Source: Ascidia mentula
Lineage: Eukaryota; Chordata; Ascidiacea; Phlebobranchia; Ascidiidae
Length of the DNA: 64,000 bases
Direction of reading: 5' to 3'
Assembly: GCA_947561715.1 (NCBI GenBank)
Contig: OX387197.1
Coordinates: 18,274,266 to 18,338,265 of the forward strand
In this document: one piece after another, positions 12,559 through 49,748 of the stretch
Layout of the letters: each line of letters starts with the position of its first letter
Numbering within the stretch: the first letter of the stretch is position 1
Notes under the pieces: generated by a model
Databases searched by the model: none
The model's input: only the letters and a program-made list of their open reading frames with translations
What the model was told of the DNA's origin: nothing
Made by a program: the position numbers and the translations under genes

Positions 12559-15530
12559 CGCATGAACTATGTAAAAAATATACATGGTATTCTCATGTAT
12601 GCACCTGTACCGACTGTTTCAACTCGTGATAGGGCACTAATATTTTCATTGGAGAATATACAACTTCCTGGAAAACTTAGCGTTGTTATAGGTGGCTTAA
12701 ACTGCCAAATGGATATTAAAGAAGGATTCCAGGTATATATGTATCTTATTTGATTGTTATTTTGCTGAGAAGAGTTGAAATTGACACTAAATTGCAACAA
12801 CACTTTTGCCACTCTTTCGGCCAACATATGGCCTAACAAGTTTTGTTTTTTAAACGAGACTGATTCGTTTGCTAATCTCTCCCGGTGTTCATTTTTAACG
12901 ATACTGAGGTTTCCTCACTAAAACAACGGGAAAGCCTCACTTTATAAGATGTGGCATAAAAACGAAATAAAATTTCCCAAAATATCTTCAGACATCGTGC
13001 AAAACTGCCAATGCAAAGGAGGTCAGCATGTGACGGCTGTGGTCCAACGGCATGGCGTGATTTTTCGTGGGGCGTTCACCTTTAAAAAAGGACGACTTGA
13101 TACCTTACAAAACTACATGCAACACTCGAATCTTACCGACATTTTTCGACTTAGAAAAAAAATCGCCACTGTCACTATCCCGAATCGACTTTTTTCTTGT
13201 CGATCGCAGCTTAATCAGGGACGTAGTAAATGTTTACATTGTCCCAGGAATTATGTCAGATCACAGTGTGCTAACCTTAGATGTTGCAATAAACCCATCT
13301 CCGAAAGGAAAGGGCTACTGGAAGCTAAATACTATGCATTTAAAAGACGAAAAATACAGGGCAACAATCAGGAAAGTCATCAACAACTTCATTCTTGAAA
13401 ACCTAGAAACAGACACAAATCCCCACACCAGATGGGACGCATAAAAAGCAGTAATTCGGGGTGAGTCGATCCGATTTGCGGCCGTACTAAAGCGCAAATT
13501 AACCGTCAAACATAACGCCTTAGAGAAGCAAAAAAACTTTAACCTAGAAAAGCTCGCGCTGCCAAAAATCACTTGCAAACAAGCGGAAAAACTGAATGAG
13601 GACACAGCAGAAGCGGAATTTTTAAATGTGATTAAAACCATGCAAAAAAAAATCGCCAGGCTTGGATGGCTTCCCAGTTGAATTTTACATGATTTTTTGG
13701 GATGATATCAAACTGGTCCACCTAAATGCATGAAAGTTTACGGTTGAAACCGGTAAAATGTCCGCGAGCCAATCTGAAGGACTCATCACCCTAATTCCCA
13801 AACCTGGGAAAGACCTTTTACAGGCCCAAAATTATCGCCCAATAACTCTGCTAAACGTTGACTATAAGATCGCCGCAAAAGTGATCAGCACAAGAATACG
13901 CGATGTTATCGACGATATCGTATCCAACGACCAAAACGGCTTTCTTCCACACCGCTATATATATGAACAAATATCCGGTTGCTGTTCGACATGATTGACA
14001 GTACGGACCATTACCGCGTTCCTGGGGCAGTACTGTCTTTAGATATTTATAAAGCCTTTGACACTTTATGGTGGTAATTTATCTACACAACTCTCTCTGC
14101 GTTCGGGTTTGGAGTCAGATTTGTCAATCTCATTAAATGCTTTTACCAAAATGCCTCTGCGAGGGTCACCAATAGCAACTTTCTCTCAGAATCTTTTGAC
14201 ATAGAACGTGGCGTCAGACAGGGAGACCCACTCTCCCCAACGTTATTCGTGCTCTGCATCGGATGCCTAGCAACTGCGCTTAGACAGGGTGATTTTGAAG
14301 GCATACGACTTAACGAATACAAAACATCCTTATTTGCGGATGATACACTCGTTTTTACTAAAGATTCTGATGCGAATTTCACCAAAATCTTTCACAGGTT
14401 GCAAAGTAAATGTGGAAAAGTCCTGTGCCTTTTTCATAGGTCCAAATCGCTCAAACCAACACAAACCATTTCAAAAGGATGGACTTCAATGGCTCTCGGA
14501 ATCTATTAAGTACCTTGGGGTTATAATACCACTCACAAAATACAAAGATGAGGAACTTATCGAACTAAACTTTTCTCCGGCACTAAAAAAACGAACATAG
14601 TAATGAACCTTTGGGCGACCAGAGGATTAACCCTTCCCGGCAAAATACAATAGCTAAGAGTCTCATTATACCTCTATTGACATATAAACTGTGCGTCCTA
14701 CCAGTGATCATCCCCAAAAAATGTATTTGTAAAATCGACCGAGCCTTATTTAAATTTATATGGGGCCCATCTTGGTAACGAATTAAAAGAGTTACCCTGT
14801 GTAAAAGTTTGGATAACGGTGGGGCGGGCATGATACATATTGAGAACTATATGTTGGCTTTAAAATTTAAAGCGCTCGAGGAACTATTTTGCGAGGAAAC
14901 AAAAAATATATAACGGGTCTTCAAACTCCATTCTTACACCCAAACAGATTGGAGGCACTATTAAACGCGACGGTAGGCCCATCAAGTACAATTTTGAGGA
15001 GCCTCATCCCATTGAGAACCCTCCGTTGTATCATAAACATTGCGAAATCAATCCTGAGCAAAACCCCGACCACGCATGCAACAGACCTCTCTGGCTCAAC
15101 AAAGCATTACAAAAACGCAGAAAACCCCTATTTCGAAAAATTTATAGACACGGGAGTAATGGCCCACAACGACCTTGGAGGCAAATATATAAAAATATAC
15201 CTCAAACTAAATTAATAAGTTTTCAAATTAAGCAAATTAAGATCAAATCTCAGGGCCATTGTGACCAATAAAAAGTTAAAGGATCTGAAGTTTACAGAAA
15301 CAGGTGCATGTGTCTTTTGCGAAAATGCCGAGGAAACTGTTTTACATTTATTTGTAAATTGCCCTATTGCAGCACATTACTGGGAAAATGTATGCAGTTG
15401 GCTCAGTGCTAAACTTCGTGTACCCTTGTATTTTTCTCCTGCGCATTTACTGTTCGGTAGACATCAAAATAACAATATTTTGGATGCTTTTAAAATTGCG
15501 CTCTTCTTTGTGCCAGATTTGTAATTTATC
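12559..15530 (+). mobile_element. Decayed L1/Tx1-like LINE (endonuclease, reverse transcriptase, zinc-knuckle tail)
   Basis: Pieces of one LINE ORF2 in order on the plus strand. Endonuclease middle at about 12590-12720 (YAP...DRALIF...VVIGGLNCQMD, where GDFN is expected). About 330 bp of unrelated sequence follows. Endonuclease end at 13170-13290 (SRIDFFLVDRS, SDHSVL). Linker at 13440-13720. Reverse transcriptase with PKPGKD and NYRPITLLN at 13790-13850, LDIYKAFDTL at 14038, RQGDPLSPTLF at 14215 and LFADDTLVF at 14330. C-terminal CVFC...HLFVNC zinc-knuckle region at 15305-15365. The frame changes several times (for example near 13150, 13440, 13720, 13990, 14400 and 14600) and there are stops, so it is dead. 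No ORF1, poly(A) tail or target-site duplication was found. Clade assignment is by motif style and is tentative. Confidence 0.88.
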
Positions 15531-19600: not shown

Positions 19601-22272
19601 TAATGCCATTGCCATAGCCATAGCCACCATCAGTGGCTGATTCAGCTTGGCTGCGAAGCCTATGAATCCTCTAGGTTAATTTTGAAAAGGTAATTGATAA
19701 TAAATGTTCAGAAACTGGCCAACCCTAACGTTTTGTTGGTTCTGTAATATTTTTTACAACATAAAACATGGTAGGTAGCAACTAATTTTACTTGTGCTAT
19801 CTAAATTTACACATTACATACAAAATTCAATACTTCCATGAAAAACGTTCGCTCATCAGCAGAATATCTGGCCGAGTCGCGTTATTACTTTTCTTTAGCC
19901 ATTAATCAAGAAATGGCAATATTGATTGTCAACACAACAAGAAACAATTAAATTAACAGTCAAATGTAACAAAAACAACGCACAAAAGTAGGATTGATCC
20001 ACCTCAAAGGTTTGAACAACATTTCAGATCAAAATGTGTCATTCTGATCTACGATCAGGTTTTATCCGAGTTTCTGAATATGGATCAATGAAAACTGATC
20101 CGGATTAATTGATTTGATTCTTGATCGGGGATTGTGAATATCACCCTTAACAGTCTGCTTGGATACTATACATTGGTTTAAAGTTAAAGAAAGGTTGTTT
20201 TGTATATCATCCTTGTAAGTAACAAAGAGTTATTCTAAATTTTTACTGGAAATTGAACTCTTGTTGGAAATGACAGTGTTCTGTGCATGTGTTTATGTAG
20301 AGAAAGATCATTGGGCTTATGCTGGATTTTCGTGAAAAAGAAAAAAATCGTTTGGAGTCAAATAGCACCTGTCTTCTTGGAGATGTCACAACTGTCAATC
20401 TAACAATGCTTGAGGTAAAATCATATATGAAAGCTGTTTGCCAATATTAGGTTAATAACTATTGCTTGATCATAAAGTTATGTATTTATGTGTGGTTGGC
20501 ATGAATAATAATCTGGTCGGTGAAAAACTGATGTTTTAGGGTGGATTGGCTTACAATATAGTACCCGCTGAGATGGCAGCTGGATTTGACATAAGAATTG
20601 CACCAACCTTGAAACTTGAGGTATTATTACACCTACATCCTCGAATACAGATATTCCCAACCTTATAGAATGATTTAATGTGAGTAATATTTCCAAGTAC
20701 CGGCCCCTCAAAAGGTGTGGCAGATGAATATATCATAAATAAAATCAACTACAGTTCTCTCTAGCACTTCATAGGAGACTTGACAAAAAAAAACAATGCC
20801 ATGCAACTGTTGCGACCTGGATTCAGTTTTCCACCTTTTAGAAATATGCATAAACATGTGCCTAAAGTTTTTCGAAGATGAAAAGTTTTCAAAATTATGT
20901 AAATGTCCAATATAATAAAACTGAAAAATCAACTATTTGTAGTGCAATCCATACACATTGCACAATCATCACTGATTTTGCTTGAAGGATTTAGGGAAGA
21001 TGTTGGATGCGTGGTGCAAAGAAGCAGGTGAAGGTGTTTCTTACACCTTTTTACAGGTAACAAAGATACAAGTAACTTATTTAAATTTTTATTGTCCTAA
21101 CCATGTTTGTTATTAAAACAATATCAGGTGCAAAATATGTGATAAAGAGTTTATTTTTGAATTGTGTAAGCTGCAGACAGATGGCCACTGTTTCGACCTA
21201 AAAGGCCTCATCAGTGCAGCTGGTGTGACTTTCAGACAACTTTGCTGACCAAACGGCCAAGCAAAGACTTCCACTTTGTGGTGACTATACAATCACCGTC
21301 ATCCATTGGGCACCACAATAGGTGATTGTACAGTCACCACAAAGTGGAAGTCTTTGCTTGGCCGTTTGGTTAGCAAAGTCATCTGAAAGTCACACCAGCT
21401 GCACTGATGAGACCTTTTAGGTCGAAACAGTGGCCATCTGTCTGCAGCCTACACAATTCATATTATTGGCTCCACTTTGCTTAGTTAATTTTTGTTTTAG
21501 AAAAATACAGATCAATCAACTACCTCCACGGATAAAGCTGACCCATGGTGGAATGCATTCAACTCAGCATGTGAAGAAATGTAAACATAAGTTGCAGAAC
21601 CTCTTTGTGATAGTGCTGTGATTATGAGTTCATTTTTAAGTGCAATTTATGGGGAGACACTGTTCTAGTGTTTGTTAAAAACATTGTTTAAACAAAAAAT
21701 ATTTTTATCTTTAAGTAAACTTAACTAAAAAATATCATTTATAATGGAAACTGAAATAATTCCTTACGATTTCAATATATTTATATAAAGGAAAAACTGT
21801 CACGCAAACAACTTAGGGTTCTATACAGGAGTTGTTCAAAAATTATGTTTCCAATTTTGTGTTGGCCATAAGCTATCAGGAGATTCTGACAATACAAAAT
21901 TTTATTTACCATTTTTTTGTCAGACTGGTGTCCCTAAATATATTTGTTAATAGTGGTGTGCCCCTGAGTTTGGAAATATTTCCAGCAGGAACAGACAGCA
22001 GGAAACTAAGAGAGGTATTTGTATATTAAAAAAAATGCATTAAATTTGTTTACATTTGCAAAGCTGTGATGAAAAACTAAGCAACCAAAATCTACTTTAA
22101 ATGAGTCTGTTTTTTAAAGGCTGGATATCCGGCAATTGGGTTCAGTCCAATAAGGAACACTCCAATACTTCTTCATGACCACAATGAGTTTCTCAATGAA
22201 AACATCTTTCTTGAAGGCATTGATGTGTACTGCAAGATTATTCCATCTCTTGCTAATGTTCCTGAACATTAA
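16691..22272 (+). CDS. ACY1: Aminoacylase-1-like M20 metallopeptidase, copy 1
   Basis: Hydrolyses N-acyl amino acids in the cytosol (known for the family). Twelve exons: 16691-16772, 17080-17144, 17207-17320, 17669-17840, 17925-18071, 18139-18212, 20301-20414, 20540-20620, 20988-21056, 21501-21580, 21954-22014 and 22120-22272. They sum to 403 residues, against about 408 in human. Active-site landmarks: HSHTDVVP (metal His and catalytic Asp), GRGTQDMKC (bridging Asp), DEEIGG (general-base Glu pair), LDEG, PGHGSRF (dimer-domain His) and LLHDHNEFL (metal His). Intron 6 (about 2.1 kb) holds a Harbinger-like transposon and intron 9 holds a hammerhead-bearing palindrome. An AATAAA lies at 22285, only 13 bp after the stop. 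It is clearly diverged from copies 2 and 3. Confidence 0.93.
18294..20146. mobile_element. Non-autonomous PIF/Harbinger-like DNA transposon in ACY1 copy 1 intron 6
   Basis: The ends are inverted repeats: left GTGTGGTATTCACAATC and right, read inversely, GGGTGATATTCACAATC, with two mismatches in 17. The similarity continues inward for over 100 bp as a GATC-rich region (left 18310-18430, right 20020-20135). Both sides are flanked by TTA (18291-18293 and 20147-20149), the 3 bp TWA duplication typical of PIF/Harbinger. No transposase reading frame is visible, so it would need help in trans. Family is inferred from the TSD and GG-type terminus; hAT and piggyBac fit less well. Confidence 0.72.
19578..19684. 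repeat. About 90 bp segment between direct repeats, nested in the Harbinger-like element
   Basis: The phrase ATCCTCTAGGTTAA occurs near 19578 and again near 19667, bracketing a more GC-rich stretch with GCCATAGCCATAGCCACC. This could be a small insertion with a 14 bp duplication, or a tandem duplication. Nothing else is recognisable. Confidence 0.4.
21170..21220 (-). ncRNA. Type I hammerhead ribozyme (minus-strand copy)
   Basis: Mirror of the plus-strand ribozyme in the left arm. Read on the minus strand: GCTGCA, CTGATGA, stem II GGCCT-TTT-AGGTC (one G-U pair instead of A-U), GAAA, CAG-loop-CTG, GTC, TGCAGC. The core is unchanged and the only stem II difference preserves pairing. This strand is antisense to the aminoacylase transcript. 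Confidence 0.82.
21398..21448 (+). ncRNA. Type I hammerhead ribozyme (plus-strand copy)
   Basis: Every conserved part is present in order. Stem I 5' strand GCTGCA (21398-21403). Core CTGATGA (21404-21410). Stem II GACCT-TTT-AGGTC (21411-21423). Core GAAA (21424-21427). Stem III CAG, loop TGGCCAT, CTG (21428-21440). Cleavage triplet GTC (21440-21442). Stem I 3' strand TGCAGC (21443-21448), fully complementary to the 5' strand. The predicted cut is after C21442. Stem III is short (A-U, C-G, A-U, G-C), which resembles minimal hammerheads of animal repeats that work better as dimers. Confidence 0.85.
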
Positions 22273-48500: not shown

Positions 48501-49748
48501 TACAATAATAAGGGTAACGTGCAGGGGGATGGTTATATGTTGTTAAACCAAAGACAATGTGGCCAGCCGAAAAGAATTTTTTTGTATAAGCGATATGAGT
48601 GTTGGTTTTGGCACTGTTGGTTTTAGCTTTTTCCTGCCCACAGTATTTCCATCATGGTTGGTTTCCGGCGGGTTACACCTAGTTTGGTACCCAATGTCTA
48701 ATGACGCTGACAAGATCGTTATAAGTCACATCATAGCTGCAGTTATGAGACCTATTGGGTCTGCAGCTCACTATGGTGAGTTTACTGTTTAATTTTGTAT
48801 TAGATGATGGTTCTTGATCTATCATGGAACTTAATTGGAGACGCCGGGGCTTCTTATCTGTCTAGATGTGTCCACAACGTCAATCTTCTCATATTGTGTC
48901 ATTCTCATATTGGAGCAGAGGGCGTCAAACATCTGACCAACGCAATAACAAATCTTTGCTTTCCAGTAAATACATTATACCTATATATTTTTTTGCGTTC
49001 GGATTTTGGATTATATTTGTGTATAGGCCTACAACCGCCTCAATTATCTGATTAGCAGTTTACATATTGTCTGTAGGCGAAATTTGTGTTGTAGGGCTAA
49101 ATTGTTATCTCAACTGAACTCAGATATCTTTCATATAGATGAAAAGGTTGAATCTGAGTGGAAACAAGATCGGAGACGATGGGGCCATTTCACTCGCGGG
49201 ATGCGTTCACAACCTGAAAATGCTGGAACTTGTCGACTGCGGTATTGCGAACAGCGGTGCTCAAATCATTTTTGAGAAGTTGCAAGCGGTCCCTGCACCG
49301 GTAAACTGTTTCTTTGTATATAAACATGTGTTTGGATAAGCATCCAAGGTTCGAATGAACGTAGTCCAAAACCTGTTTTTTGTTGCATAACCATTTTCAT
49401 ACACATGGAAAAAATGTTTTTGCGTGACTTACAGGCTACAAACTAGCTGTCACTTCCAGTGACAGTTTTGTTTCTGTTGTAGTTTCTTTAAATGTGATAA
49501 AAGGTGTTTTTATTCTCACAACACCACTATCAGACGTTGTTTCTACGTCATTCAGTTTTCGTTCTGTGTTGCAGATGGAATGTCTGAAGTTATCTTACAA
49601 TCCTGGTATTACAGACGACTGTCTTAGCTCCCTGCTGGGTTGCACTGACAACCTAAAAATTGTGCATATCAGCTGGTGCTCTTTGACCGACAACGGCAAA
49701 AAAATTCTGGCTGCGAAGTCGCATCAAAACTGTTCACTCACATTTTAA
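45591..49748 (+). CDS. NLR (NACHT-LRR) innate immune receptor with an unclassified N-terminus
   Basis: Seven exons: 45591-45755, 45821-46019, 46435-48104, 48255-48416, 48804-48965, 49139-49300 and 49575-49748 (897 residues). The first ~120 residues have no Death, CARD or TIR fold I can recognise and include HIHTSGSVYNAQVVMQNPIV. NACHT: Walker A GPTGIGKTT, Walker B VLLIFDGLDKAD, sensor KIFTSRPDQM, and winged-helix FSHLIWQEYFAA as in vertebrate NLRs. Four LRR exons follow. The first three are exactly 162 bp, phase 0, each beginning with a leucine repeat such as LDLSWNNVG or LNLSGNKIG. Cytosolic sensing is inferred from the family; the ligand is unknown. Poly(A) signal at 49765. Confidence 0.9.

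What the first reader, a model, noticed from the sequence alone, without database searches (positions are those of the whole stretch)
21158..21460. Palindrome encoding two outward-facing hammerhead ribozymes in an aminoacylase intron
Both arms of a 140+23+140 bp inverted repeat carry a complete type I hammerhead, one per strand. Self-cleaving ribozymes are known in animal satellites and retrozyme-like repeats, usually as direct tandem copies. A head-opposed pair inside one fold-back is unusual. Such RNA could switch between a long hairpin and two ribozymes, and either strand of transcription would yield a cutting site. It could be a new non-autonomous element family, or one frozen unit of a larger one.
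Basis: partly seen in the sequence, partly recalled or inferred. Interest (0 to 1): 0.9.

Follow-up and report, generated by a model that had tools for sequence, protein, structure and literature searches.

The report
Sea-squirt retrozyme inserted as a palindrome
The palindrome is one copy of an abundant tiny ribozyme-bearing mobile element in a sea squirt, and its mirror-image shape with two unequal tails is the same mark left by Penelope-like retrotransposons, which suggests how these ribozyme elements jump.

Summary
In detail: 140+23+140 bp arms, each with a hammerhead core, one per strand. The assembly matches Ascidia mentula, not Ciona. The window copy (21160-21482, imperfect 12-bp target duplication) belongs to a dispersed family: the 44-nt core occurs 1379 times (up to 3 mismatches; reversed control 0). 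The unit is a 285-bp monomer, also in tandem, as in animal retrozymes. Palindromic copies share one plan: ribozyme tails outward, one end about 15 nt past the cleavage site (A), the other about 45 (B), with AT-rich duplications. Of 31 two-armed copies examined, 28 have one A and one B end, none A+A or B+B, three have one unreadable end. Three Penelope-like insertions read in this genome show the same plan. In 9 of 19 palindromes neither arm can be a copy of the other, which argues against fold-back priming and for priming from both nicked target ends. Best reading: a non-autonomous retrozyme moved by Penelope-like machinery. The RNA 'switch' idea is unsupported: the transcript is predicted to be one long hairpin. 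New variant of a known kind; cleavage, RNA circles and helper are untested.

The parts
21148..21159 (.). left target-site duplication, AGTTTATTTTTG
   Evidence: matches the right copy 11 of 12; random placements reach this score (9) or more in 16 of 500
21160..21322 (-). arm 1 of the retrozyme (sense RNA on - strand), ends at site A (about 13-21 nt past the cleavage site)
21169..21221 (-). hammerhead ribozyme motif, cleavage predicted between 21176 and 21175
   Evidence: sequence; family alignment
21321..21324 (.). junction of the two arms (4-nt overlap of the two family matches)
   Evidence: arms 21163-21324 and 21321-21483
21323..21482 (+). arm 2 of the retrozyme, ends at site B (about 44 nt past the cleavage site), i.e. 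with the about 30-nt tail
21397..21449 (+). hammerhead ribozyme motif, cleavage predicted after C21442
   Evidence: sequence; family alignment
21483..21494 (.). right target-site duplication, AGTTAATTTTTG
20988..21056 (+). aminoacylase-like (ACY1) exon piece upstream of the host intron
21501..21581 (+). aminoacylase-like (ACY1) exon piece downstream; host intron is 21057-21500 (splice sites read by eye)

Best explanation
It is one insertion of a non-autonomous, non-coding animal retrozyme (285-nt monomer with a type I hammerhead). Proposed working: transcripts are cut by the hammerhead and circularised (inferred, not shown here; shown for other animal retrozymes in PMC7229834). A Penelope-like RT/GIY-YIG protein nicks both strands of an AT-rich target about 12-14 bp apart (TSDs and AT bias shown; the enzyme inferred). 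Both freed 3' ends then prime reverse transcription inside the RNA, one at site A and the other at site B about 30 nt further 3' (A/B ends shown; priming inferred). Each cDNA runs upstream through the cleavage junction, sometimes for more than one lap, which gives tandem copies, and the two cDNA ends are joined, perhaps by short matches (inferred). The product is a head-to-head palindrome with both ribozyme tails pointing out. The copy in the window is such a product, now in an ACY1-like intron and probably inert as a ribozyme because its transcript should snap into a long hairpin.
For: Copies and tandem unit. Outward orientation: hammerhead family 1, 10 '-+' and 0 '+-' neighbour pairs (within 1.5 kb) among the first 100 listed of 1379 places; GIY-YIG places, 22 and 0 (within 6 kb) among 150 scored of 382 candidates; family 2, 11 and 0 after setting aside 6 whole palindromes whose order the query imposes. 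One A plus one B end in 28 of 31 two-armed family-1 copies, 0 A+A, 0 B+B (ends of L019, L022 and the nine assigned by eye); the nine chosen only for having two exact cores are 9 of 9, each with a 9-14 bp exact duplication. TSD score 10 or more in 16 of 20 copies (one- and two-armed) against 8 of 500 random placements; 22 TSDs average 13.0 bp and are 76.7% AT against 61.2% background. Target-RNA overlap at 30 ends 2.2 nt against 0.7 with swapped targets. Reach test: in 9 of 19 copies the A arm reaches 27-510 nt further upstream than the B arm, so neither can be a copy of the other. Arms of one copy are on average more alike than arms of different copies (Wilcoxon p 0.013, 16 copies). Same architecture, TSD and one-sided tail in three Penelope-like insertions of this genome: L037 (2405+9+2405 bp, 100%), the five-unit C67 array, L054; the L037 ORF has RVT_1 (7.1e-10) and GIY-YIG (3.4e-6). 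Independent biochemistry: an anole Penelope-like protein cleaves and extends both target strands, starts internally at two adjacent sites, prefers AT-rich DNA (PMC11167929, main text read).
Against: No shared sequence was found between the retrozyme tail and the Penelope-like tails I could read, so the helper is not identified. Rfam does not accept the hammerhead at its cut-off, and free folding of the arms does not single it out. No RNA evidence of cleavage, circles or expression. The window's own TSD is imperfect (11 of 12). Three two-armed copies (L007, L025:3097, L049) lack a recognisable tail at one end; L007 and L025:3097 also lack a TSD, L049 was not tested. L022:4753 has A/B ends but no TSD was found. 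Five one-armed copies with TSDs (L022:5159, L023, L025:4862, L044 with only 7 bp, L048) show no second arm long enough to read; others (L026, L043, L046, L047) gave no clear TSD or were not tested. In 3 of 16 copies (L007, L019, L045) the two arms are no more alike than arms of different copies. A deletion at the junction after insertion could mimic the reach test in single copies. Part of the target-RNA overlap excess may come from how TSD edges are drawn. The PAc paper saw no difference in start site between strands, which does not by itself predict the A/B rule.
Confidence: 0.8

Rival explanations
1. Self-priming: a single RNA (sense or antisense) or cDNA folds back at its head end and is copied into a head-to-head inverted repeat before integration. 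This is the explanation offered for rotifer Penelope palindromes in PMC3846280 (antisense template; passages seen).
For: Gives head-to-head palindromes with alike arms; arms of L037 are 100% identical; compatible with the reach of the arms in 10 of 19 copies, in which the B arm is the longer.
Against: The second arm can only hold what the first holds. An A-ended arm cannot template the B tail, and in 9 of 19 copies (L008, L009, L011:3978, L019, L022:4753, L024, L045, L052, window) the A arm holds upstream sequence absent from the B arm. It also predicts equal tails, against one A plus one B in 28 of 31.
Confidence: 0.07
2. Two separate insertions or post-insertion inversion/recombination between copies made the palindrome.
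For: The family is abundant, and duplicated copies exist (L049-L051, L015/L021).
Against: One TSD brackets the whole two-armed unit; no '+-' neighbour pair was seen; arms of one copy are on average more alike than copies in general; a five-unit Penelope-like array (2 minus, 3 plus) is bracketed by a single 12-bp TSD.
Confidence: 0.05
3. A MITE or fold-back DNA transposon that happens to carry hammerheads in its terminal inverted repeats.
For: Palindrome with TSDs.
Against: The two ends are not the same sequence (A versus B), arm length varies from about 30 to about 790 nt, one-armed and tandem forms occur, TSD length varies 9-17 in the two-armed copies.
Confidence: 0.03
4. Mobilised by a LINE-type element by target-primed reverse transcription with twin priming rather than by Penelope-like machinery.
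For: Twin priming (recalled, LINE-1) also primes both target ends; the window holds ORF pieces that look LINE-like at about 12949-15215 (judged by eye, not tested).
Against: Both ends here start at two fixed sites about 30 nt apart, without a poly(A) by eye; the one-sided tail and head-to-head tandem form match the Penelope-like insertions read in this genome and the description in PMC3846280.
Confidence: 0.07

Closest known systems
Metazoan non-LTR retrozymes (Cervera and de la Pena 2020, PMC7229834; abstract and sections 13, 14 and 17 read)
   Same: Type I hammerhead, short tandem unit (285 bp; theirs 150-450), TSDs longer than 4 bp, thousands of copies.
   Different: Head-to-head palindromic copies, fixed A/B ends and a one-sided tail: a term search of that paper found 0 of 'inverted', 'opposite', 'tunicate', 'ascidian', 'urochordate'. 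There the Penelope link is suggested from co-existence and shared features; here it rests on insertion anatomy.
Penelope-like elements (PMC3846280 passages; PMC11167929 main text; PMC8969392 passages)
   Same: Head-to-head inverted copies, about 30-nt 'tail' on one inverted repeat only, TSDs, AT-rich target, hammerhead in the repeat, tandem units.
   Different: The retrozyme encodes no protein and has a hammerhead with a 4-bp stem III by eye, unlike the minimal hammerhead-like motifs of the PLEs read here.
Plant LTR retrozymes (PMC4918200, search listing only)
   Same: Non-autonomous, hammerhead-bearing, circular RNA.
   Different: Type III hammerheads, LTRs and 4-bp TSDs (as stated in PMC7229834).
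Schistosoma W elements (PMC8490949, passages)
   Same: Type I hammerheads in short repeats, possible TSDs and inverted repeats.
   Different: The passages describe satellite-like elements, not TSD-bounded two-armed insertions with A/B ends.

Membership tests
Metazoan non-LTR retrozyme | type I hammerhead with intact catalytic core | tested here: met
   core letters intact in 42 of 49 aligned copies; Rfam gathering score not reached
Metazoan non-LTR retrozyme | short non-coding unit in direct tandem | tested here: met
   285-bp laps in L011, 284 and 268 in L018; no closed ORF of 100 aa or more overlaps 21160-21482
Metazoan non-LTR retrozyme | TSDs longer than 4 bp | tested here: met
   16 of 20 copies against 8 of 500 random placements; 9 of 9
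Metazoan non-LTR retrozyme | no LTR, PBS or PPT | not tested
   no dedicated search made
Metazoan non-LTR retrozyme | self-cleavage and linear/circular RNA | not testable with these tools
   no RNA data or bench
Penelope-like element | encodes RT plus GIY-YIG | tested here: not met
   the element is 323 bp without a long ORF; the PLE of L037 has both domains
Penelope-like insertion mode | head-to-head inverted copies with tails outward | tested here: met
   10 to 0 (family 1), 11 to 0 (family 2), 22 to 0 (GIY-YIG places)
Penelope-like insertion mode | about 30-nt tail at one end only | tested here: met
   28 of 31 two-armed copies A+B, 3 with one end unreadable
Penelope-like insertion mode | retrozyme RNA is used by the PLE protein | not testable with these tools
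   needs a purified protein
MITE / fold-back transposon | same terminal sequence at both ends | tested here: not met
   one end A, other end B
Rfam hammerhead families | gathering score | tested here: not met

The most novel reading that the evidence does not exclude
Penelope-like machinery brings both nicked ends of the target to one circular RNA at the same time, one end at site A and the other at site B 30 nt away, so a single RNA circle bridges the break and is copied into both arms, once or in several laps. Retrozymes are parasites of exactly this step, and palindromic 'pseudo-LTR' structures of Penelope elements in general are its product, not self-priming.
Probability: 0.35. Interest if true: 0.88.

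Novelty: new variant of a known kind. Interest (0 to 1): 0.74.

Why it matters
How retrozymes move and why Penelope-like elements so often form head-to-head palindromes with one optional tail are open questions in the papers read. A small, abundant, non-coding element with many readable insertions turns both into a counting problem: the A/B rule and the reach test separate two-ended priming from self-priming in genome data alone, and name two sites and one protein class to test at the bench. It would also tie ribozyme-bearing circular RNAs to a specific class of reverse transcriptase.

Tried and rejected
Considered and dropped: (1) a regularity x+y about 306 in the arm junctions, first seen in the copies found by similarity to the window; the gaps of the ten head-to-head pairs in the positional listing do not show it by hand calculation, so I take it as search bias. 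(2) The microRNA-like and sRNA Rfam matches at the centre of the palindrome are what a long hairpin would give. (3) Sequence similarity between the retrozyme tail and Penelope-like tails: in the loci scanned only the second retrozyme family shares the tail motif. (4) Free folding of the arm RNAs (z -0.6 and -1.5) neither supports nor excludes the hammerhead; the + strand hammerhead is 1.4 kcal/mol above the predicted minimum. (5) Craig et al. 2021 on Penelope-like elements could not be read.

Rows dropped before counts: L021 (same flanks as L015), L050 and L051 (same flanks as L049), L035 (like L028) and L001-L006 (same places as longer loci). In one search six whole-palindrome matches are set aside because the query fixes their order; some of the remaining 11 pairs look like segmental duplicates, so about 8 are independent. 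Most of the first 22 two-armed copies come from a similarity search with the window copy and are biased towards its form; the nine plus L018 are all the two-core head-to-head pairs within 1.5 kb in the first 100 listed places. The reach test used the 19 A/B copies whose inner arms were fetched, not the nine. GIY-YIG places were not each checked for a reverse transcriptase.

Full report
What was checked. The inverted repeat is there at the stated place (140 nt arms, 96%, 23 nt apart) and each arm carries a hammerhead core, on opposite strands and pointing outward. Rfam does not call it at its gathering score, only weakly. It is not chance: the 44-nt core with up to 3 mismatches is found 1379 times in the genome against 0 for the reversed pattern. 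The host intron is 21057-21500 of an aminoacylase-like gene. The assembly's nine large contigs have the lengths published for Ascidia mentula (PMC11109543, passages seen), so it is an ascidian but not Ciona.

The family. In other places the unit is a 285-bp monomer in direct tandem. The two full laps of L011 printed are identical, while arms of different loci differ by about 8% on average. The arms of the palindromes start past the predicted cleavage site and, except for the short B arms of L024 and L052, run back through it, so the template was not the cut linear monomer but a circle or an uncut multimer (inference). As a circle one monomer is predicted to be well folded (-91.4 kcal/mol, z -3.1, 1 of 100 shuffles as low). 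The catalytic core is intact in 42 of 49 aligned copies. A second family with about 293-bp spacing shares the hammerhead and the tail motif and also makes palindromes.

The plan of the palindromes. Every close pair of opposite strand that I counted is '-' then '+': 10 to 0 in family 1 (first 100 of 1379 places, within 1.5 kb) and 22 to 0 for GIY-YIG places (150 scored of 382 candidates, within 6 kb), and 11 to 0 in family 2. In sense coordinates from the cleavage site, one end lies at about 7-28 (site A) and the other at about 40-58 (site B), as far as alignment can place them. I examined 31 two-armed family-1 copies: 22 from the first sets and nine from a list chosen only for two exact cores. 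Twenty-eight have one A and one B end, none has two of a kind, and three (L007, L025:3097, L049) have one unreadable end. TSD scores of 10 or more occur in 16 of 20 copies against 8 of 500 random placements; 22 TSDs average 13.0 bp and are AT-rich (76.7% against 61.2%). The nine list-chosen copies all share 9-14 bp. The window copy's TSD matches 11 of 12; random placements score as high in 16 of 500. Ends overlap the target by 2.2 nt on average (30 ends) against 0.7 with swapped targets; part of this excess may come from how TSD edges are drawn.

Penelope-like elements in the same genome. L037 holds a 2405+9+2405 bp palindrome, arms 100% complementary, each with a 699-aa ORF; the + one has RVT_1 and GIY-YIG. 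It has a 12-bp TSD and a tail on one side only. An array on C67 with five GIY-YIG places, two minus and three plus, is bracketed by one 12-bp TSD, with the tail on the left only; its interior was read only in part. L054 shows the same plan. A second family on C52, three minus and three plus, has one end about 72 nt longer and a low-complexity 14-bp repeat at its edges, by eye. So whole multi-unit arrays look like single insertions.

Mechanism. Fold-back copying cannot make a copy in which one arm has the tail and the other has more upstream sequence; that is the case in 9 of 19 copies, by 27 nt in the window copy and 31-510 nt in the other eight. Later deletion in the B arm could imitate this in single cases. 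Two separate primings, one from each nicked end, explain it directly. An anole Penelope-like protein does cleave and extend both target strands and starts inside the RNA at two adjacent sites that bound the genomic 'tail' (PMC11167929, main text read). The rotifer paper that describes head-to-head palindromes and the 31-bp tail on one repeat prefers self-priming on an antisense template (PMC3846280, passages). What is shown here is the anatomy; that a Penelope-like protein does it, that the RNA is circular, and that both ends sit on one RNA are inferences.

The window copy itself. Its sense transcript is predicted to form one long hairpin (-257.7 kcal/mol) that uses up both hammerheads, so a ribozyme role in the aminoacylase intron is unlikely.

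Print status. Searches of the held library with combinations of hammerhead, retrozyme, Penelope, inverted, palindromic, twin priming, head-to-head, tunicate and Ciona listed no paper whose title or abstract start reports palindromic or A/B-ended animal retrozymes. The listings were capped at 20 of 36, 31 and 26 papers, and Craig et al. 2021 is not held. The Didemnum genome paper mentions 9 type I hammerhead loci (PMC8704543, one passage).

Noticed in passing
G000 C67:about 6133720-6147180 (L041, L042, L053): Five Penelope-like units with 2870-bp spacing within each arm, two minus and three plus by their GIY-YIG places, bracketed by one 12-bp TSD: about 13.5 kb that looks like a single insertion.
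   Followed up: partly
G000 C52:9243979-9259647 (L038-L040): Three minus and three plus Penelope-like units, 3493-bp spacing within each arm, open frames of 953 aa in four of six by the listing; one end about 72 nt longer than the other.
   Followed up: partly
L037:7250-7557: Second retrozyme family, about 293-bp spacing elsewhere, with its own palindrome, 10-bp TSD and A/B ends by eye; its stem III loop holds a palindrome.
   Followed up: partly
window 12949-15215: ORF pieces that look like a decayed LINE-type retrotransposon (by eye).
   Followed up: no
window 48610-48711: Weak match (72.5%) to retrozyme positions 75-168, a part without the hammerhead.
   Followed up: no
G000 C1:1926436, 1956152, 1975077 (L049-L051): Three places with the same retrozyme fragment and right flank, about 19-30 kb apart, so a repeated segment.
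   Followed up: no
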